This document shows positions 1 to 7,251 of a DNA stretch of 7,337 nucleotides, one piece after another. The stretch covers positions 1 to 7,337 of the forward strand of contig QILJ01000379.1 of NCBI GenBank assembly GCA_003233295.1, given 5' to 3'. Numbering within the stretch: position 1 is the first letter of the stretch; the number at the start of each line of letters is the position of its first letter. This DNA comes from Ignavibacteria bacterium. GTDB taxonomy: Bacteria; Bacteroidota; Ignavibacteria; Ignavibacteriales; Melioribacteraceae. The notes below the pieces were generated by a model. The model made no database searches and had not been told where the DNA came from. It saw only the letters and a program-made list of their open reading frames with translations. Made by a program: the position numbers and the translations under genes.

Positions 1-1280
1 GCTTGAAGCGAACGGTTGATTACTCCATTAGAAATACTTCTGCATTGATCTAATCTGTGATGAACGTCTTTTTCAATTTGGTCTAAGCCGGTTCCCGAAA
101 TTGAGTCATGCGGATGTGACTGCAGTAAATATTTCCAAGCCATATCTAAATAATTTTTCGGATATTCCTTGCCAAGTAGAAAAGCAATAACAGAATAAGG
201 TTCTGCTTTACGCTGCAACTCTTGTTCAGCTAAAGCATTTTTTCTCTTCATATTTGTACGTGTAGAAGTTACATCGCCATATAAATGCTTTCTTGACCCC
301 AATTGACGTGGAGTTCGGCGTTCACCCTTTAGCACAGTCAAGTTATCCCAGTCAACTGACTTCTTTAGTGCATCGATAAACTCAGGCAAACTGCTATGAA
401 ATATTTCATCATCGGTTAAATATTTAGCAGCTTCCTGCATCGTTTTCATTTCATAAACGTCAGGTTGTGTGCTATCCATTCCTTGCATACATGCTATGTT
501 ATTAGTAGTCGCATGTTTGGTTTCAATTTCTTTTAATTCCTGCATTGATTTTTTTACTGCATTAGAATCCAATTTCTTTATTGGATCGAGCAATATATGA
601 TGCCCCATGTGTTTACCATTTGCTGCAAGATGAAAAGGGAGTCCCTTTTCATCCCAATTATAATCACGTTCCAAAATTTCTTTTCCATAAACAGAAGGAC
701 GATAAACAGTAAAGAAAAAATTATAACGTGCATTCGAACCCATTCGTGACCCAAGAATTTGAGTACCATCAGCGCCTTCAAAAATGAACTCGGCAGGAAC
801 CTCTCCAGAATTAACTCCGTGATAGAAAAGAATCGTATCTATGTCAAAGCCTTTATAGATCTGCGGCATTTGTGATGCTTGCCCATAAGAAAAAGGAGAA
901 TAGCCAACCTTCATCGGTTCGCCATATTTTTTTGTAACCCTATGACCAATTAGTAAATTTCTAATTAGAGATTCACCATTGACCAAGTGCTCTTCCGGTA
1001 ATGTGTACCATGGTCCAACTTGTAAACGTCCTTCTTGAATTCTTTTGCTAATCTCATCTTTTTTCTCGGGACGAATTGCTAAATAGTCTTCAACCGGAAT
1101 TATCTGAGAATCGAGCAAATATGTTTTATACTCGGGATAATCGTTAAAGATTGTTAACAACTTATCCATAAACTCAACTAAAAACATTCTCGTTTCCTGA
1201 AAATCATATAGCCATTCTCTATCCCAATGAGTGTTTGTTATAAAATGAAACTTCAATCCTTTATCATTATCTTTTGCCAC
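1..1280 (-). CDS. GH38 alpha-mannosidase-like protein, N-terminal 426 residues (3' end beyond the left edge)
   Basis: The frame is open from 1280 to the left edge with no stop, giving 426 codons. Known GH38 enzymes are retaining, zinc-dependent alpha-mannosidases, usually 850-1000 residues in bacteria, so about half the protein is present. The motifs appear in family order: NTHWDREW (residues 16-23; His18 and Asp20 match the first two zinc ligands), VGPWYT (near residue 82), GYSPFSYGQ (126-134), QGMDST (266-271; Asp269 sits at the proposed acid/base position) and SHPHDSISGTG (388-398; His391 matches the last zinc ligand). The nucleophile Asp expected inside the third motif is Phe130, so ordinary mannosidase chemistry is doubtful. 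No signal peptide is visible, so it is probably cytoplasmic. I chose the GTG start at 1280 because AAGG lies 7 nt upstream, an in-frame TAA lies just before it, and no ATG precedes the HWD motif. A terminator separates it from the upstream operon, so it may have its own promoter. Family assignment is firm; substrate and activity are unknown. Confidence 0.9.
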   Translation of the reverse strand, partial: MAKDNDKGLKFHFITNTHWDREWLYDFQETRMFLVEFMDKLLTIFNDYPEYKTYLLDSQIIPVEDYLAIRPEKKDEISKRIQEGRLQVGPWYTLPEEHLVNGESLIRNLLIGHRVTKKYGEPMKVGYSPFSYGQASQMPQIYKGFDIDTILFYHGVNSGEVPAEFIFEGADGTQILGSRMGSNARYNFFFTVYRPSVYGKEILERDYNWDEKGLPFHLAANGKHMGHHILLDPIKKLDSNAVKKSMQELKEIETKHATTNNIACMQGMDSTQPDVYEMKTMQEAAKYLTDDEIFHSSLPEFIDALKKSVDWDNLTVLKGERRTPRQLGSRKHLYGDVTSTRTNMKRKNALAEQELQRKAEPYSVIAFLLGKEYPKNYLDMAWKYLLQSHPHDSISGTGLDQIEKDVHHRLDQCRSISNGVINRSLQ

Positions 1281-1391: not shown

Positions 1392-2339
1392 TTATTTAAC
1401 TGAATCTACAACAAATTTTGAATCCTTTAATATTTTTAGCTCTCCGTTTTCATCAAACCAAACTTTTGATGCTTGATCAAGACTATATTTTTCCTCTGGA
1501 GATAAAACTCGTGGATAGCGCGTCAACGGCTTTATAGGAATACCTCGTTTGCTGATCAAGTATTTCACTCCCATCGGATGAACAGAACGCTGCGCCATTT
1601 CCATTCCACAAAGGATACCATTCAGTTCATCGGCAGTTGGATCACCTTCAAGTCCCCTTTTTAATACTTCAAGTTCAAGATCCGGGATCCAATTCGCTGC
1701 AATATTCATTGAACCGGGTGAGCCTAATTTAACCGCCTCTAACATGTAAGGAACATTTGCCTGTAAAAATGAAAGATTAGTATCCCTTGTAATTTCAATT
1801 ATCTTTTTGATTCTATCGAGATTACAGCTTGTTTCTTTGTATGCAAAAAATCTTCCAGTGTTTGTGAGAACCTTTACTAAATCAAATCCCAGATTATAAG
1901 AACGAGGAACCGGGCATTCATATATGCCAAGTTTGGCGTCGGTTTTTTCAACAATAGTTAAATAGTACTTCTCAAGTTCCTCATCCGTATTATGAAAAGT
2001 TGGTACTGTAAGCATAACTATTTCAGCACCGGCATCTGCTGCTTTCTTAATAAATTCTATATGCTCATCAACATTATTACCAAAGTTCCCTGTTGCTACA
2101 ACAGGAAATTTTCCATCTACAACTTTTAACGCTTCAGTAATTAATAATAATCGTTCATCATCTGTTAACTCAAACATTTCACTAGATTGGCAATTTGCAT
2201 AAACTCCGCCAAGATCTAATGATGAATACCACTCAAGCATTTTCCTATATCCGTCAATGTCAATAGAAAGGTCATCATTATAGGGAGTTATTAAAACAGG
2301 CCAAACTCCTTTATACTTTTGATTGCTCTTTTCACTCAT
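1392..2339 (-). CDS. DapA/NanA-superfamily class I aldolase or dehydratase
   Basis: This 315-residue protein matches the usual length (about 290-320) of the dihydrodipicolinate synthase/N-acetylneuraminate lyase superfamily. These TIM-barrel enzymes form a Schiff base between lysine and a 2-keto acid, often pyruvate. The Schiff-base lysine is Lys168 in AYKETS, and the catalytic tyrosine is Tyr140 in IYECP. The N-terminal GVWPVLITPY is also typical. The canonical GTTGE loop is replaced by CQSSE (50-54), and the Arg five residues after the tyrosine in E. coli DapA is Pro145 here, with Arg146 next to it. Lysine biosynthesis is therefore unlikely; a catabolic aldolase or keto-deoxy-sugar-acid dehydratase fits the operon better. 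The ATG at 2339 has GGGAG 6 nt upstream, directly after the araB stop (11-nt gap). It is the last gene before the terminator. The superfamily is firm; the substrate is unknown. Confidence 0.88.
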   Translation of the reverse strand: MSEKSNQKYKGVWPVLITPYNDDLSIDIDGYRKMLEWYSSLDLGGVYANCQSSEMFELTDDERLLLITEALKVVDGKFPVVATGNFGNNVDEHIEFIKKAADAGAEIVMLTVPTFHNTDEELEKYYLTIVEKTDAKLGIYECPVPRSYNLGFDLVKVLTNTGRFFAYKETSCNLDRIKKIIEITRDTNLSFLQANVPYMLEAVKLGSPGSMNIAANWIPDLELEVLKRGLEGDPTADELNGILCGMEMAQRSVHPMGVKYLISKRGIPIKPLTRYPRVLSPEEKYSLDQASKVWFDENGELKILKDSKFVVDSVK

Positions 2340-2350
2340 TTGTGACTCCC

Positions 2351-4027
2351 TTAATTAAGTGTTCGTTTTATTTCAATAAGCTTTTTCATTACACCAAACA
2401 AACTCTCTTGATGATCTTTCACTCCAAATGCATCATGCAGAGTTTTATACAACTCATAAATTTGAGAATAAGTTTCATGCTCTTTTTCATTCGGAGTATA
2501 ATCCTTATCCTTTACTTTACATACCCTTGATTGAATTTCTTCAATACTTTGAAAACCCTCTTTATCTTTCATTGCAACAAAACCACCAATAATTGCAGCG
2601 CCCATTGCAACGGTTTGTCCGCTTGCAGCAACGTCCATTGGTCTTCCTAAAATATCTGCATATATCTGCATTACCATTGGATTCTTTTCAGCAATGCCGC
2701 CGCAGTTAACCAGTTTATCTATCTTTATTCCGTATTCTTCCATCCTTTCAATTATCATCAGAGCGCCGAAAGCAGTTGCTTCAACTAAAGCGCGGTAGAT
2801 TTCATAATCTTTTGTGTGAAGTGTTTGACCAAGAATCAATCCGGTCAAATTGAAATCTGCCAATACATTACGGTTACCATTGTTCCAATCTAGTGCGAGC
2901 AAACCAGACTGACCGGCTTTTAATTTTTCCGCTTTCTCGGTTAATACATTATGATAATCACCATCTCGGTTCAGAACATTGGAGACAAACCAATTGAATA
3001 TATCACCCACAGCAGATTGACCCGCCTCAATACCAATATAACCCGGGAGAACTGAACCATCAACAACTCCGGCAACACCTGGAATATTTTTAATTTCTTT
3101 ATCTTTTGGCGATGCCATTATATCGCAAGTTGATGTACCAATGATCTTTACCAGCACTCCTTCGCCAACACCGGAGCCAATAGCGCCTATGTGAGCATCC
3201 AAAGCACCGACTGCGATTGGGGTTCCTTCTTTCAATCCAAACTTCTCTGCCCATTCTGAGGAAAGAGTTCCCATAGTCTCATCAATTGTATACGCTTCAT
3301 CGCTTAATGTTTTTCTTAGTTCAACAAATTCAGGCGCTAATTTTCCTAAAAATTCTTCATCCGGATATCCGCCCCATTCTTTACTGTACATTGCTTTATG
3401 CCCGGCAGCGCAGACATTTCTTTTTAGATCGGAAATATTTGTTATTCCTGCAATTGCCGCTGGAATGTAATCCGAACACTCAAGCCAAGTAAAGGCTGCA
3501 TCGAAAACTGTTCTATCAACATTGTAGCAATGAAGTATTTTTGAGAAGAACCACTCTGATGAATAAGCGCCGCCGCATTTTGCAATATATTCAGGACGAA
3601 TTTCAGCGGAAAGTTCCGTTATTTTTTCCGATTCCTCTATTGACGAATGATCTTTCCATAACCACGCTTGAGCATTAAGATTATTTTTGAATTCATCCTT
3701 CAAAGCTAAAGGCACTAAATCTTCATCAACAGGAATGGGAGTTGAACCGGTAGTATCAACACCAATGCCCGCAATTTCATCAACAGAAATATTTTTACTT
3801 ATCGCTTCGGTTACTGCTGCTTTAACTGCAATTTCCATGCTTTCGAGATAATCACCGGGATACTGTCTTGCTACAAGCGGATTGTTTTCATCCAGAAGGA
3901 TCCCACTATTTCCGTTCTTGTAGTTTGAAACCGAGCTGGAAATCTCTTCTCCATTAGTTAAATTAAGTACTAATGCTCTAACAGAATTTGTTCCAAAATC
4001 TATACCAAGTGCATATACATCGTTCAT
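2351..4027 (-). CDS. araB: AraB-type ribulokinase (FGGY carbohydrate kinase)
   Basis: This 558-residue cytoplasmic kinase is close in length to E. coli AraB (about 566). AraB phosphorylates L-ribulose to L-ribulose 5-phosphate with ATP, and the family also accepts other 2-ketopentoses. Recognisable AraB blocks occur in order: DFGTNSVRA (10-18, N-terminal phosphate-binding fold), YPGDYLESM (56-64), GIGVDTTGSTP (87-97), WLWKDH (122-127), GGAYSSEWF (152-160), AAGHKAM (207-213), GALDAHIGAIGSG (274-286; Asp277 is the likely catalytic base), KIIGTSTCDI (294-303), GIEAGQSA (332-339) and GGIAEKNP (443-450). These match the ribulokinase branch rather than xylulokinase or glycerol kinase. The start at 4027 follows the preceding stop by 5 nt, and its AGGA ribosome-binding site lies at the end of that gene, suggesting coupled translation. 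No frameshift or missing key residue was seen. The araA and araD partners are absent from the window, so the physiological ketose is uncertain. Confidence 0.95.
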   Translation of the reverse strand: MNDVYALGIDFGTNSVRALVLNLTNGEEISSSVSNYKNGNSGILLDENNPLVARQYPGDYLESMEIAVKAAVTEAISKNISVDEIAGIGVDTTGSTPIPVDEDLVPLALKDEFKNNLNAQAWLWKDHSSIEESEKITELSAEIRPEYIAKCGGAYSSEWFFSKILHCYNVDRTVFDAAFTWLECSDYIPAAIAGITNISDLKRNVCAAGHKAMYSKEWGGYPDEEFLGKLAPEFVELRKTLSDEAYTIDETMGTLSSEWAEKFGLKEGTPIAVGALDAHIGAIGSGVGEGVLVKIIGTSTCDIMASPKDKEIKNIPGVAGVVDGSVLPGYIGIEAGQSAVGDIFNWFVSNVLNRDGDYHNVLTEKAEKLKAGQSGLLALDWNNGNRNVLADFNLTGLILGQTLHTKDYEIYRALVEATAFGALMIIERMEEYGIKIDKLVNCGGIAEKNPMVMQIYADILGRPMDVAASGQTVAMGAAIIGGFVAMKDKEGFQSIEEIQSRVCKVKDKDYTPNEKEHETYSQIYELYKTLHDAFGVKDHQESLFGVMKKLIEIKRTLN

Positions 4028-4032
4028 GAAAA

Positions 4033-4266
4033 TTAATCCTGATTACTTGTTTTTAATTTCTTAATAGTCATCCATGATTTTATTATCATTCCAGCCCCAA
4101 TTGCACACAAGATTAATCCCGCTACAAGATTGGTCATTTCCCCAATATACGTGTTTGTATGAGTGGTTGCTATCAATATCACAATTCCAAAGAAAAGGAT
4201 AAAAACACCGAGAGCATTATTGATCTGTGCACTTTTTTCTTTTGCTTTATCTTCTTTAGTCATCAT
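4033..4266 (-). CDS. Small two-helix membrane protein, unknown function
   Basis: I do not recognise this 77-residue protein. It has a charged N-terminus rich in Lys and Glu, two hydrophobic stretches (about 18-34 and 46-63, the second rich in Gly and Ala), and a basic C-terminal tail (KSWMTIKKLK). By the positive-inside rule both ends should lie in the cytoplasm. Two adjacent ATG codons open the frame. AAGGA lies 3 nt before the first and 6 nt before the second, so the second may be the real start (76 residues). It sits 14 nt after the 71-residue gene and 5 nt before araB, in the symporter operon, so an accessory role for the transporter is plausible. That role is inferred from context only. 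Confidence 0.72.
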   Translation of the reverse strand: MMTKEDKAKEKSAQINNALGVFILFFGIVILIATTHTNTYIGEMTNLVAGLILCAIGAGMIIKSWMTIKKLKTSNQD

Positions 4267-4280
4267 CTTTCCTTAAAACA

Positions 4281-4496
4281 TTAAAATAAATAGTATGTAT
4301 AATATAAAACAGCCATTACGGCTAATGCCCATATTTTAAGATTCATCCACCAGTGTCTGTTTTCAACTTCAATTCCTTCGAATATATATTCGTTTGGAAT
4401 AATTATGATAAGCAAACCAATCAATATAAAAAGTCCGTAAAAGAACCATTTTGCAGATTCAACTGATACTCCAGCTAACCAATCAAAATTTAACAT
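4281..4496 (-). CDS. Small two-helix membrane protein next to the symporter, unknown function
   Basis: This 71-residue protein has two predicted membrane helices, at about 17-34 and 54-70. Between them is a loop with NEYIFEGIEVENRHWW (residues 35-50), rich in acidic and aromatic residues. No signal peptide cleavage site is evident. The ATG at 4496 has GGAG 6 nt upstream. The gene begins 15 nt after the symporter stop, so translation together with the transporter is likely. Some sodium:solute symporters are encoded beside short membrane partners (the YjcH-ActP and YhdT-PanF pairs of enterobacteria), and this may be an analogous accessory subunit. I see no clear sequence similarity to those partners, so this is inference. 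Confidence 0.75.
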   Translation of the reverse strand: MLNFDWLAGVSVESAKWFFYGLFILIGLLIIIIPNEYIFEGIEVENRHWWMNLKIWALAVMAVLYYTYYLF

Positions 4497-4511
4497 TTAT
4501 CACTCCAATTA

Positions 4512-6011
4512 TTATTTACTATCTGCTTTATGAACTTTATATACTAAACCATCCAATTTGTCAGCCGAATATGGTTCGGTAAAGAAAGTAACAACTATTG
4601 TAACTATAAACGCTAATACAAATGACCACCAGGAAACATAAAGGAATGGATCTTCTATAGTAAATATCGATTCGCTAAATAAATTCAGATAAAAGGCGAA
4701 TGCTATACCAATCACTAAGCCCGATAATCCACCCCACTGCGTTGCCCTTTTCCAAAAGATGCCTAATAATAAAATTGCGAATAATGGACCTTGGAAGAAT
4801 GATAAGAAAGTCTGTATCGCCACGTATATTCCGGGATAAAGACTACTAATCGGAGCCGTGGCAACACCTATGACTAACAAAGCAAGTGTAGTCAACTTAC
4901 CGACTAGAAGATAATGTTTATCTTCAGCATTCTTTTTTATAAACGGCTGGTAAATATCTTTTGTAAAAAGTGTTGCGGTTGAATTGAGCATTGAATCGAC
5001 ACTTGACATTAAACCTGCAAAAAATGCAGAGAACATTAATCCTATTAATCCGGGCGGTAGTATTTTTTTTATCATCATTGGTAAAGCTTGATCACCATCT
5101 TTCAAATCAGGAAAGAGAATAATAGCGACAAGCCCTGGAAATAAAACTAATAACGGGATGAGCATCTTAAGTCCGGAAGCAAAGATCATACTTGCTTTCG
5201 CATGCCATTCATTTTTTGCAGTCAAACAACGCTGAACGATTGCTTGATTACCGATCATATATGCATTTGCCATAACAAATGTAAGTCCAAATAATATACC
5301 TGTCCAAGGGAACGGAGTATTCGAAGTAGAGGGTTGGATCAAATCAAAATGCCTCGCATATTCCGGACCAAGCGCATATATTTTTTCTACCAATGCATCC
5401 CAGCCGCCAATATAATAAAAACTCAAGAATACGAGAGTAAAACCTCCAACAAACATTATAATCAGCTGCACAACATCTGTCATTACTACTGCTGTAATTC
5501 CACCGAAATATGTATATAAACCCACTACCGCAGCAGTTACGAATATTGAAAGCCAAATCGGCCATCCCATCAGAACATTCAGTAATACAGCGCTTGCCCA
5601 AAAGAGGACTCCCAGATCTACAGCAAAGAAAACTATCCAAGTAACAGAAGCAGCTGTTCTAACATATTTATTATATCTTCTCCCTAAGTATTCCGGAATA
5701 GTGTACATTCCGCCTTTCCAGAAATAAGGAATAAAAATGAAAGCGGCAAGAAGCATAGCAGGAACAGATCCAATCCAATCGAAATTCCCTACCGAAATCC
5801 CATATCTATAAGCTTGTCCGGAAACACCCACAAAATCGAGCGCCCCGATATCAGAAACTACAATTGACATCCCAATTGCCCAGAACGGTAAACTTCTTCC
5901 ACCGAGAAAGTAGTCTTCTGAAGTATCAACAAATCTTTTGAAGTAATATCCTAACAGTAGAATACCTATCAAATATGCTATCACAACAAAATAATCTATT
6001 CCAGCAAGCAT
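4512..6011 (-). CDS. Sodium:solute symporter, SGLT-like (SSS family), probably sugar
   Basis: This 499-residue inner-membrane protein has about 13-14 hydrophobic helices, as expected for SSS transporters, which couple solute uptake to sodium. Family signatures are EDYFLGGRSLPFW (32-44), the helix-1 segment SDIGALDFVGVSGQAYRYG (53-71), IPEYLGRRYNKYVR (105-118), NQAIVQRCLTAKN (255-267) and SSVDSMLNSTATLFTKDIY (336-354). The paired serines 336-337 match the sodium-site serines of Vibrio SGLT, and the STATxFTxDIY ending is typical of the sugar-transporting branch rather than proline or pantothenate carriers. FWKRATQWGGLSG (419-431) is another conserved block. The ATG at 6011 has AGGAGA about 8 nt upstream. 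The gene lies 38 nt after the deoxyhypusine-synthase-like gene and 15 nt before a small membrane protein. A monosaccharide substrate fits the AraB kinase downstream; the exact sugar cannot be read from the sequence. Confidence 0.93.
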   Translation of the reverse strand: MLAGIDYFVVIAYLIGILLLGYYFKRFVDTSEDYFLGGRSLPFWAIGMSIVVSDIGALDFVGVSGQAYRYGISVGNFDWIGSVPAMLLAAFIFIPYFWKGGMYTIPEYLGRRYNKYVRTAASVTWIVFFAVDLGVLFWASAVLLNVLMGWPIWLSIFVTAAVVGLYTYFGGITAVVMTDVVQLIIMFVGGFTLVFLSFYYIGGWDALVEKIYALGPEYARHFDLIQPSTSNTPFPWTGILFGLTFVMANAYMIGNQAIVQRCLTAKNEWHAKASMIFASGLKMLIPLLVLFPGLVAIILFPDLKDGDQALPMMIKKILPPGLIGLMFSAFFAGLMSSVDSMLNSTATLFTKDIYQPFIKKNAEDKHYLLVGKLTTLALLVIGVATAPISSLYPGIYVAIQTFLSFFQGPLFAILLLGIFWKRATQWGGLSGLVIGIAFAFYLNLFSESIFTIEDPFLYVSWWSFVLAFIVTIVVTFFTEPYSADKLDGLVYKVHKADSK

Positions 6012-6049
6012 ATAGTATTTCTCCTAATTATTCACAAAAATTATAACTT

Positions 6050-7156
6050 TTAGCTATGCTCGTTTAATCTTTGATACAAAGCCAAAAGGAAATCTCTATT
6101 ATCAGCAGACAGATATTTCATTGTCCCGCCCATTCTGCTGAAAGTTTTTAAGTATCTTAAATAGTAAGCCGGATCTGTGGCAGGCGGTTCACCGTCAGCC
6201 CAATCCCAAGTACTTTTTGCTAAATCAACAATAAGCATATAATGATTATCAATGTGCTGTCCCTTCTGAATATGAACATTCTGTGACATGGAAAGGGATT
6301 TTTCGAATATCATCGGTGACATTACAGCAGAACCAACGGACATGTAAACACCATTTTCGAGTTGATTGATTTGATTTGCAAAAGTTAAAAAATCACGCAA
6401 TGCTGTTCTTCCGATAGCAGCGCCGTGATTAAGCGGATGAGTATATATAATATCATGTCCGATCATCGGGTGCCCCGTAAATGGGATGTGTAATCTGTAT
6501 GCAGCAGCTTGAACACAATATTGTTTATATGGAAACGGTATTTCCATCCAGCCGGATGGAAGATCAAACTTTTTTATTGTATCTAATAAATCCAATGCAG
6601 CAGCAGTTTTTTCCGGGTTTGAATAATAATCTTTTACGATCTGATCAATTTCTTCCTCAGTTGGAATTTTAAGACCGCCGTTTTCTATCATACTGCCAAC
6701 CGATTCTCCATAACCTTTATCCTCAAATGCACCTACTACTAACGCAAGATTGATGTATTTACCCGTTTCGTCCCAGATACCAAACTGTCCCATATTCACA
6801 TTAGCTTTAACATCTTCACTACTTACACCTTGATAAGCAAATTCCCAATCATGGATAATTCCGGCGCCGTTTGTTGCCAAATGTGTGAGCCATCCTTCTT
6901 CCATTAATTTAATTATTGTAGGAGCCATGCAATTTTTTATTGTATGAGCCCCCATGGTTAACATTACCGGTGCATCTTTTTCTTTAGCCTTTATGATCCG
7001 CTCAACTGTATCGTTAACAATTTTGTTAAATATCTCTGAATCATTAGAAGGTTTTTGTGTAATCGGGATTTGATCTTTTTCAATGTTGACTTTGTTATAT
7101 CTTTCGGAAAGAGGTTTAACATTTAACCTAGTTCTATCAAATCGAGGATACGGCAT
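6050..7156 (-). CDS. Bacterial deoxyhypusine-synthase-like protein (NAD-binding fold), function unknown
   Basis: The 368-residue product resembles the deoxyhypusine synthase (DHS) superfamily. The clearest blocks are MLTMGAHTIKNCMAP (65-79) and THLATNGAGIIHDWEFAYQG (91-110), corresponding to the NAD-binding region of DHS (its TAGGVEED segment). IPFTGHPMIGHDIIYTHP (224-241) resembles the DHS block before the active site. True DHS modifies archaeal and eukaryotic eIF5A using spermidine. Bacteria lack that target, and I cannot find the WGK motif carrying the DHS catalytic lysine. It therefore belongs with bacterial DHS-like proteins of unknown role, perhaps NAD-dependent redox or isomerisation of a small substrate. 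No signal peptide or membrane helix is seen. I prefer the ATG at 7156, with AGGTGA 5 nt upstream, over the GTG at 7165, which lies inside that ribosome-binding site. As first gene of a sugar operon, 38 nt before the symporter, it probably acts on the imported compound. The family link is moderately sure; the reaction is not. Confidence 0.75.
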   Translation of the reverse strand: MPYPRFDRTRLNVKPLSERYNKVNIEKDQIPITQKPSNDSEIFNKIVNDTVERIIKAKEKDAPVMLTMGAHTIKNCMAPTIIKLMEEGWLTHLATNGAGIIHDWEFAYQGVSSEDVKANVNMGQFGIWDETGKYINLALVVGAFEDKGYGESVGSMIENGGLKIPTEEEIDQIVKDYYSNPEKTAAALDLLDTIKKFDLPSGWMEIPFPYKQYCVQAAAYRLHIPFTGHPMIGHDIIYTHPLNHGAAIGRTALRDFLTFANQINQLENGVYMSVGSAVMSPMIFEKSLSMSQNVHIQKGQHIDNHYMLIVDLAKSTWDWADGEPPATDPAYYLRYLKTFSRMGGTMKYLSADNRDFLLALYQRLNEHS

Positions 7157-7218: not shown

Positions 7219-7251
7219 TTAGACAAACGAATGACACAATCGATTGTCTAA
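7219..7251. promoter_or_regulatory. Candidate operator: 33-bp dyad containing a perfect 12-bp palindrome
   Basis: TTAGACAA (7219-7226) and TTGTCTAA (7244-7251) are perfect inverted arms. The dyad extends inward around C7235, with 13 of 16 pairs matching. Within it, ACAATCGATTGT (7236-7247) is a perfect palindrome with a central CG, the shape typical of LacI-family operators. ACAAACGAATGA (7223-7234) matches it at 9 of 12 positions, with its CG 13 bp away. The element abuts the -10 box and covers the expected transcription start, a position suited to repression. No regulator gene is in the window, so the binding protein is unknown. Confidence 0.68.

What the first reader, a model, noticed from the sequence alone, without database searches (positions are those of the whole stretch)
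1392..7156. Uptake and catabolic operon that fits no standard sugar pathway
The sequence shows a DHS-like protein, an SGLT-type symporter, two small membrane proteins, an AraB-type ribulokinase and a DapA-superfamily enzyme in one tight operon. Classical arabinose use needs AraA and AraD with AraB. The oxidative arabinose route uses a DapA-type dehydratase but no kinase. Here a kinase and a DapA-type enzyme occur together with neither AraA nor AraD, and with a DHS-like protein as the leading gene. I infer a pathway in which the DHS-like protein performs an early redox or isomerisation step on the imported compound.
Basis: partly seen in the sequence, partly recalled or inferred. Interest (0 to 1): 0.75.

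Follow-up and report, generated by a model that had tools for sequence, protein, structure and literature searches.

The report
Unusual sugar-degradation regulon, not arabinose
An environmental bacterium carries a compact set of genes for taking up and breaking down an unidentified mannose-like glycan, in which a kinase usually assigned to arabinose probably handles D-ribulose and a protein of unknown function with a deoxyhypusine-synthase-like fold takes part.

Summary
The six genes are real, compact and co-oriented. Relatives keep the operon. It is not an L-arabinose locus by context: the two nearest MAGs lack AraA and have only weak AraD-like matches; Agaribacillus aureus has a separate araB-araD-araA cluster, while its nearest relative of the window kinase (58%) sits beside a fucose-isomerase-type gene. 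A LacI-type palindrome in the window promoter recurs exactly, on another contig of the nearest MAG, before LacI-LacI-FucI-GmhA-like-HAD; a second species shows variant sites at matching places. Best reading: the DapA-like enzyme cleaves a 2-keto-3-deoxy sugar acid (I propose Kdo) to pyruvate and D-arabinose, FucI gives D-ribulose, the kinase gives D-ribulose-5-P; the DHS-like GSU2086-family protein belongs with a GmhA/HldE-like arm. Families, linkage and shared sites are computed; substrates, reactions and operator function are inference.

The parts
7236..7247 (.). LacI-type operator-like palindrome ACAATCGATTGT upstream of the operon (function inferred)
   Evidence: exact 12-mer only at window, L001/L106 (nearest MAG, same place) and L138:1517 in 1,710,621 bases held, overlapping loci included
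6050..7156 (-). GSU2086-family protein with deoxyhypusine-synthase-like fold (368 aa from the ATG at 7156)
   Evidence: NF052581 336.5 bits, cut-off 250; AF2 model and fold matches
4512..6011 (-). SSS-family Na+/sugar symporter, best-scoring solved relatives vSGLT/SGLT1
   Evidence: PF00474 260.3 bits; 2xq2 246 bits
4281..4496 (-). 71 aa small membrane protein, possible symporter accessory subunit (inferred from position)
   Evidence: conserved beside the symporter in L001, L002, L005; no family at E 0.001
4033..4266 (-). 77 aa small membrane protein, possible symporter accessory subunit (inferred from position)
   Evidence: conserved in L001, L002, L005; weak PF02659 match, 25.7 against 24.4 bits
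2351..4027 (-). AraB-type FGGY pentulose kinase, read here as a D-ribulokinase
   Evidence: NF003154 630.6 bits; 3qdk 392.7 bits; FucI-linked relative in G003, tree
1392..2339 (-). DapA-superfamily lyase/aldolase of an unnamed subfamily (motifs CxSSEM, YECPxPR, KET)
   Evidence: PF00701 100.1 bits; alignment A2; PDB profile alignment
3..1280 (-). GH38 alpha-mannosidase-type protein, first 426 aa, cut by the window end
   Evidence: 95% to L104 GH38, which has PF01074

Best explanation
The operon is the uptake and early-catabolism part of a LacI-controlled glycan-use regulon, not an arabinose operon. GH38 enzymes release alpha-linked manno-configured sugars. The SSS symporter, perhaps with the two small membrane proteins, imports the product. 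Arm 1: the DapA-like enzyme cleaves a 2-keto-3-deoxy sugar acid, which I propose to be Kdo, into pyruvate and D-arabinose; a co-regulated FucI-type isomerase makes D-ribulose; the AraB-type kinase makes D-ribulose-5-phosphate for the pentose phosphate pathway, so neither AraA nor AraD is needed. Arm 2: the DHS-like GSU2086-family protein works with a GmhA-like isomerase and a PfkB (HldE1-like) kinase with a HAD phosphatase/mutase on a manno-configured sugar such as a heptose, perhaps as a redox-neutral NAD epimerase. Computed: gene families, linkage, shared palindromes, no AraA found in the two nearest MAGs. Inferred: that the palindromes are LacI operators, every substrate and reaction, and the role of the DHS-like protein.
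For: Kinase: in G003 (Agaribacillus aureus) the closest relative of the window kinase (58%) lies in FucP (TIGR00885 479 bits, cut-off 280.4) - FucI-like - kinase - DUF6786, with two DUF2961 genes upstream, while the same genome has a separate araB (45%)-araD-araA cluster. In a tree of 124 kinases (window, the 120 listed hits out of 8000, three from G003/G004) that relative is 51st nearest to the window kinase and the other G003 and G004 kinases are the last two, 122nd and 123rd; listing only the best hits favours this. D. gadei on D-arabinan makes a 'predicted fucose isomerase' as its most abundant carbohydrate-active enzyme (PMC10115798, passages). Regulon: the exact 12-mer is shared by the window promoter and L138:1517 before LacI-LacI-FucI-SIS-HAD in the nearest MAG; first-order simulations had it in the window 3, in L138 2 and in both 0 of 2000 times, which by my arithmetic is about 0.2 chance hits over all 1.71 Mb held. 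A related palindrome (2 mismatches) lies at L138:5665 before SIS. In G002 a variant 10-mer occurs upstream of DHS, upstream of an earlier gene, and twice between LacI/FucI and SIS-PfkB-HAD (4 sites in 37,386 bases against 0.083 expected, 0 of 1000 simulations with 4; the variant was chosen after looking). DapA lies with SSS, HldE-type adenylyltransferase, PfkB, HAD, GH38, BNR and SIS genes in G007, with a FucI-like gene on the same contig. NAL-type DapA relatives make KDO from D-arabinose and pyruvate, though at about 1-1.5% of the ManNAc rate (PMC4016182, passages); Lys and Tyr are kept (K168, Y140). SIS proteins carry GmhA-type motifs (their role is recalled).
Against: No substrate has been shown and no binding of a LacI protein. 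The first Thr of the DapA GTTGE motif is replaced (C-Q/L-S-S-E-M), so pyruvate-type chemistry is not assured. G004 has the DHS-DapA pair but no FucI match (PF07881). G007 and G632 have FucI-like and DapA genes but only distant kinases (40% and 38%), and in G632 FucI-like and DapA lie on different contigs. The FucI of G001/G002 is a different subtype from that of G003/G007/G632 (23-28% identical) and could serve L-fucose. Representative SIS and PfkB proteins score below the GmhA and HldE1 cut-offs (160 against 209.45; 129.4 against 345). 73 of 78 DHS runs have no DapA match, and many carry mannose-type enzymes (GH92, AGE epimerase, ROK), so plain mannose use is a serious rival. The operator 10-mers are not unique to the regulon: they also occur in L003, L004, L014, L020, L053, L062 and L137. 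My paper searches gave no report of Kdo or heptose catabolism to lean on (listings).
Confidence: 0.33

Rival explanations
1. Ordinary alpha-mannoside utilisation: GH38/GH92 release mannose, and the DHS-like protein, GmhA-like isomerase, PfkB-HAD protein and (in this clade) the AraB-type kinase and DapA-like enzyme are an alternative mannose pathway, for example with a GmhA-like mannose-6-phosphate isomerase.
For: GH38 in 21 and GH92 in 13 of 78 DHS gene runs, AGE epimerase in 25, SSS in 25, ROK in 11, MFS in 10. GmhA's known reaction is the seven-carbon analogue of mannose-6-P to fructose-6-P (recalled).
Against: It gives no role to a DapA-type aldolase, to FucI behind the same palindrome, or to a pentulose kinase with AraB-type residues; L102 carries an HldE-type adenylyltransferase above its cut-off.
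Confidence: 0.27
2. Lipoarabinomannan-type glycan use: D-arabinan supplies D-arabinose and GH38/GH92 supply mannose; the DapA-like enzyme acts on some other component.
For: DUF2961 genes near the FucI-linked kinase and a DUF4185 gene near the DapA cluster in G003; both families include D-arabinan hydrolases (PMC10115798, passages).
Against: Neither family was identified in the window or L138, and L136-L140 gave no BLAST hit to the two G003 DUF2961 proteins; these stretches are short, not every ORF was scanned, and DUF4185 was not sought there. DapA is left unexplained.
Confidence: 0.15
3. One reading: a new route for an imported pentose or deoxysugar in which the DHS-like protein does the first redox or isomerisation step, followed by kinase and DapA-like enzyme.
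For: The DHS-like gene leads the operon; NAD-binding relatives by fold run redox-neutral reactions (chemistry recalled); DHS and DapA overlap by four bases in L011.
Against: A FucI-type isomerase is apparently co-regulated; DHS-like genes mostly occur with PfkB-HAD, SIS and GH38. A sugar phosphate is an uncommon DapA-superfamily substrate (recalled).
Confidence: 0.15
4. An ordinary L-arabinose locus with passengers.
For: The kinase is annotated ribulokinase by sources and NF003154.
Against: No AraA found in G001/G002; separate araB-araD-araA cluster in G003; the supposed passengers are conserved.
Confidence: 0.03

Closest known systems
AraB ribulokinase (NF003154 / 3qdk)
   Same: Whole-length match, 630.6 bits over a 428 cut-off; residues aligned to 3qdk K208, D274 and E329 are identical (that these bind the sugar is recalled)
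   Different: Below TIGR01234 (547.4 against 583.25); no araA partner found in G001/G002; the FucI-linked relative coexists with an araA/araD-linked AraB in G003
D-arabinose branch FucI plus ribulokinase (as in D-arabinan use)
   Same: FucI-family gene behind the same palindrome as the kinase operon; FucP-FucI-kinase order in G003; fucose isomerase abundant on D-arabinan in D. gadei
   Different: Here joined to a DapA-like enzyme and GH38; no DUF2961 seen in the window or L138
GSU2086 in Geobacter sulfurreducens (hldE-GSU2086-gmhA)
   Same: Same NCBIfam family by name; the family lies beside HldE-like and GmhA-like genes there (PMC5585712, one table passage) and in many of the loci here
   Different: There called a sugar biosynthesis operon; here beside hydrolases and a symporter
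Deoxyhypusine synthase / AgrE C-terminal domain
   Different: 10-19% identity; Pfam DS not reached; a DS-family gene over its cut-off coexists in G002, G004 and G632 (3 of 9 genomes)
N-acetylneuraminate lyase / DHDPS superfamily
   Same: PF00701; catalytic-lysine and tyrosine columns kept
   Different: Below the cut-offs of all 7 NCBIfam models it hits; C-Q/L-S-S-E-M in place of GTTGE

Membership tests
L-arabinose (araBAD) locus | AraA isomerase in the genome | tested here: not met
   PF02610: no match in G001 or G002; matches in G003, G004, G005 of 8 searched. MAGs may be incomplete; the window's own genome is not held
L-arabinose (araBAD) locus | AraD epimerase | tested here: inconclusive
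   TIGR00760: G001 48.6, G002 45.1 bits; 0 of 6 genomes pass the 389.1 cut-off, including G003's araA-adjacent gene, so the cut-off is strict
AraB ribulokinase | curated family score | tested here: inconclusive
   NF003154 passed, TIGR01234 narrowly missed
GSU2086 family (NF052581) | curated score | tested here: met
   336.5 against 250 bits
Deoxyhypusine synthase | Pfam DS gathering score | tested here: not met
   12.2 against 27 bits; 1 of 120 listed relatives has a precomputed PF01916 label
Deoxyhypusine synthase | catalytic lysine in SWGK motif (recalled) | tested here: inconclusive
   the profile alignment covers only a 49-column N-terminal stretch
DapA superfamily (PF00701) | domain score; Schiff-base Lys and Tyr | tested here: met
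   100.1 bits; K168, Y140 invariant in 36 sequences
Named DapA-superfamily enzymes (DapA, NanA, KdgD) | NCBIfam equivalog cut-offs | tested here: not met
   dapA 102.4/206.15, N-acetylneuraminate lyase 59.9/281 and 45.2/382, KdgD 53.5/373.95
Kdo aldolase | cleavage of Kdo to D-arabinose and pyruvate | not testable with these tools
   no model by that name among the hits; needs an assay
GH38 alpha-mannosidase | GH38 domains | tested here: met
   window part matches NF007331 with 261.4 bits (below its whole-length cut-off of 1138); the 95% identical G002 protein has PF01074, PF09261, PF07748. Pfam was not run on the window fragment itself
GmhA phosphoheptose isomerase (SIS gene behind the same palindrome) | metal/catalytic motif | tested here: inconclusive
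   GNGGSAADAQHIAAE and QE[MI]HILIGH in L138 and L139, motif role recalled; the representative scored (L079) is below the GmhA cut-off, and L138/L139 were not scored

The most novel reading that the evidence does not exclude
A dedicated catabolic regulon for the inner core of lipopolysaccharide: GH38 enzymes act on alpha-manno/heptosyl-Kdo, a new DapA subfamily is a Kdo aldolase feeding D-arabinose to FucI and a D-ribulokinase, and a DHS-fold NAD enzyme (GSU2086 family) epimerises or isomerises the manno-heptose for a GmhA/HldE-like route to sedoheptulose-7-phosphate.
Probability: 0.17. Interest if true: 0.8.

Novelty: new variant of a known kind. Interest (0 to 1): 0.52.

Why it matters
It points to a likely annotation error (a pentulose kinase called L-ribulokinase in MAGs where no AraA was found), places the uncharacterised GSU2086 family in a sugar context shared by MAGs labelled Bacteroidota, Chlorobiota, Calditrichota and others, and gives a specific testable substrate (Kdo and D-arabinose) for an unnamed DapA subfamily. 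If the Kdo/heptose reading holds, it would describe how environmental bacteria recycle the sugars of lipopolysaccharide inner core.

Tried and rejected
Arabinose locus: rejected. The 77 aa protein as a manganese pump: PF02659 only 1.3 bits over cut-off on a partial profile; not pursued. DHS membership by profile comparison: one search used wrong ORFs for two of three reference loci and is void; one search repeated it with the right ones and found only a short N-terminal match (probability 22.5%). Broader sampling of the DapA subfamily at E <= 1e-70 (1e-60): 1 of 247 genomes (phylum of G001), 1 of 391 (class), 2 of 79 (family), 2 of 63 (class of G007), 1 of 390 (order of G003). The centre genomes count among these hits; only G002 and G632 are others. 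So close relatives are rare among the genomes held. Plasmids: 639 records match the DapA-like protein, all under 60% identity, listed rows 29-32%. Census of unidentified neighbours: 88 of 125 candidate ORFs scanned; no family recurred in more than 3. Paper searches: GSU2086 (1 paper); DHS with heptose (0); DHS with mannosidase and Bacteroidetes (0); DHS-like with ribulokinase and DHS with sugar kinase (no listed paper holds the DHS term); 'Kdo aldolase' (2 papers); Kdo/heptose catabolism (nothing on such a pathway in the listings).

Counting notes: the 78 runs are 77 of the 80 loci plus the window; in 3 loci (L030, L035, L080) the script lost the DHS ORF. Families in that call are assigned by profiles built from the loci themselves, and a run is same-strand ORFs less than 300 bases apart. 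L001 is nearly the same sequence as the window. The DapA count of 5 includes L021, whose DapA is only 21% identical.
Full report
What is there. The minus strand of the window carries a compact run of genes: GSU2086-family protein, SSS symporter, two small membrane proteins, AraB-type FGGY kinase and DapA-superfamily enzyme, separated by 5-38 bases. No tRNA gene and no Rfam match at gathering score was found. The nearest relative, L001, is a Chlorobiota-labelled MAG contig (DHS 99%, symporter 100% rounded, kinase 95%, DapA 88% over the 244 residues held).

Conservation. The order DHS-SSS-71aa-77aa-kinase-DapA recurs in L001. In a second species, G002, contig C263 ends inside the kinase, and contig C365 starts inside it and continues with DapA and two GH38 genes. 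That these two contigs adjoin is inference. Agaribacillus aureus (L005/G003) has DHS-SSS-71aa-DapA with the 77 aa homologue and without the kinase, in a cluster with PfkB-HAD, SIS, GH38 and GH92 genes. L011 has DHS and DapA overlapping by four bases.

The DHS-like protein. It belongs to NCBIfam GSU2086 and does not reach Pfam's deoxyhypusine synthase cut-off, although its predicted fold matches that family and the AgrE/ArgZ C-terminal part. Of 78 gene runs around it (77 loci plus the window), 48 include a PfkB-HAD protein, 25 an AGE epimerase, 25 an SSS symporter, 24 a GmhA-like SIS protein, 21 a GH38 and 13 a GH92. By locus numbers the namesake lies between hldE and gmhA in Geobacter sulfurreducens (PMC5585712, one table passage). 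Nearly all SIS proteins keep a QExHxxxxH stretch (32 of 33) and the glycine-rich GNGGS...H...E stretch is the consensus. This family therefore seems to belong with a manno-sugar or heptose module; its reaction is unknown.

The kinase is not an arabinose kinase by context. AraA was not found in G001 or G002. G003 has an araB-araD-araA cluster and, elsewhere, a 58% relative of the window kinase in the order FucP - FucI-like - kinase - DUF6786, downstream of two DUF2961 genes. In a tree of 124 kinases the FucI-linked one is 51st nearest to the window's and the other two kinases of G003 and G004 are the farthest; since the 120 database rows are the best hits only, this shows placement, not a test. 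[quoted passage not shown] I therefore read the kinase as a D-ribulokinase; that AraB kinases accept D-ribulose is recalled.

A probable regulon. Upstream of the operon lies the palindrome ACAATCGATTGT (7236-7247). Across 1,710,621 bases of held loci, overlaps included, it occurs exactly only here, at the same place in L001/L106, and at L138:1517, on another contig of the nearest MAG. There it precedes two LacI genes, a FucI gene (PF07881/PF07882/PF02952), a SIS gene and a HAD gene; a related palindrome with two mismatches lies before the SIS gene. In 2000 first-order simulations the 12-mer appeared 3 times in the window, twice in L138 and never in both; scaled by me to all bases held, about 0.2 chance hits are expected. 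In G002 the variant CAAACGATTG/CAATCGTTTG occurs upstream of DHS, upstream of an earlier gene, and twice in the divergent region between LacI-FucI and SIS-PfkB-HAD: 4 sites in 37,386 bases against 0.083 expected; it was chosen after looking, and single copies also occur in L003, L004, L014, L020, L062 and L137. Binding is not shown.

Proposed mechanism. Putting these together, the DapA-like enzyme plus FucI plus the pentulose kinase would convert a 2-keto-3-deoxy sugar acid into pyruvate and D-ribulose-5-phosphate. Kdo is the natural acid whose aldol cleavage gives D-arabinose (recalled); the reverse reaction is catalysed by NAL-type relatives, at low relative rates (PMC4016182, passages). The Calditrichota locus adds weight: SSS, DapA, an HldE-type adenylyltransferase over its cut-off, PfkB, HAD, GH38, a BNR protein and SIS lie together, with a FucI-like gene about 11 kb from DapA on the same contig in G007. 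Kdo and heptose are neighbours in lipopolysaccharide inner core (recalled), hence the bold reading in the section on the most novel reading.

Against it. G004 has no FucI match; G007 and G632 have no close kinase; the two FucI subtypes are only 23-28% identical; DapA's threonine motif is altered; representative SIS and PfkB proteins score below the heptose-enzyme cut-offs. Mannose use remains a close rival. MAGs may miss genes, and the window's own genome is not held.

Verdict. The locus is a real, conserved and unassigned catabolic system with a probable regulon, of moderate interest.

Noticed in passing
window:3-2339 against L104: Identity to G002 is uneven along the operon: GH38 95%, DapA 71%, kinase about 85-87%, DHS 87%; against L001 it falls from 99-100% (DHS, SSS) to 95% (kinase) and 88% (DapA). 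Recombination or a mosaic assembly may be the cause.
   Followed up: no
L102:9100-9579: Stand-alone HldE-type adenylyltransferase (TIGR02199 201.2 bits, cut-off 181.5) inside a GH38/SSS/DapA locus of Calditrichota, odd for a catabolic cluster.
   Followed up: partly
L124:783-3512: Two DUF2961 genes upstream of FucP-FucI-kinase in Agaribacillus aureus, suggesting D-arabinan use.
   Followed up: partly
L128:8751-9968: DUF4185 gene (43.8 bits, cut-off 39.5) near the DHS-DapA cluster of Agaribacillus aureus.
   Followed up: no
L127:2247-3251: A second, distant DapA-superfamily gene (21% identity) beside PfkB-HAD and SIS in the same cluster.
   Followed up: no
L126:11802-13297 and L139:7195-9000: In G002 the symporter is split into three ORFs and FucI into two; assembly errors or frameshifts.
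   Followed up: no
L003:2941 and L004:2408: The G002-type operator 10-mer also occurs downstream of DHS in these two loci.
   Followed up: no
L005:6643-8205: Ceramidase-like gene (PF04734 38.4 bits) near the symporter and DHS genes.
   Followed up: no
L004: A MAG contig labelled Actinomycetota carries a DHS-like gene 75% identical to the window's; possible mis-binning.
   Followed up: no
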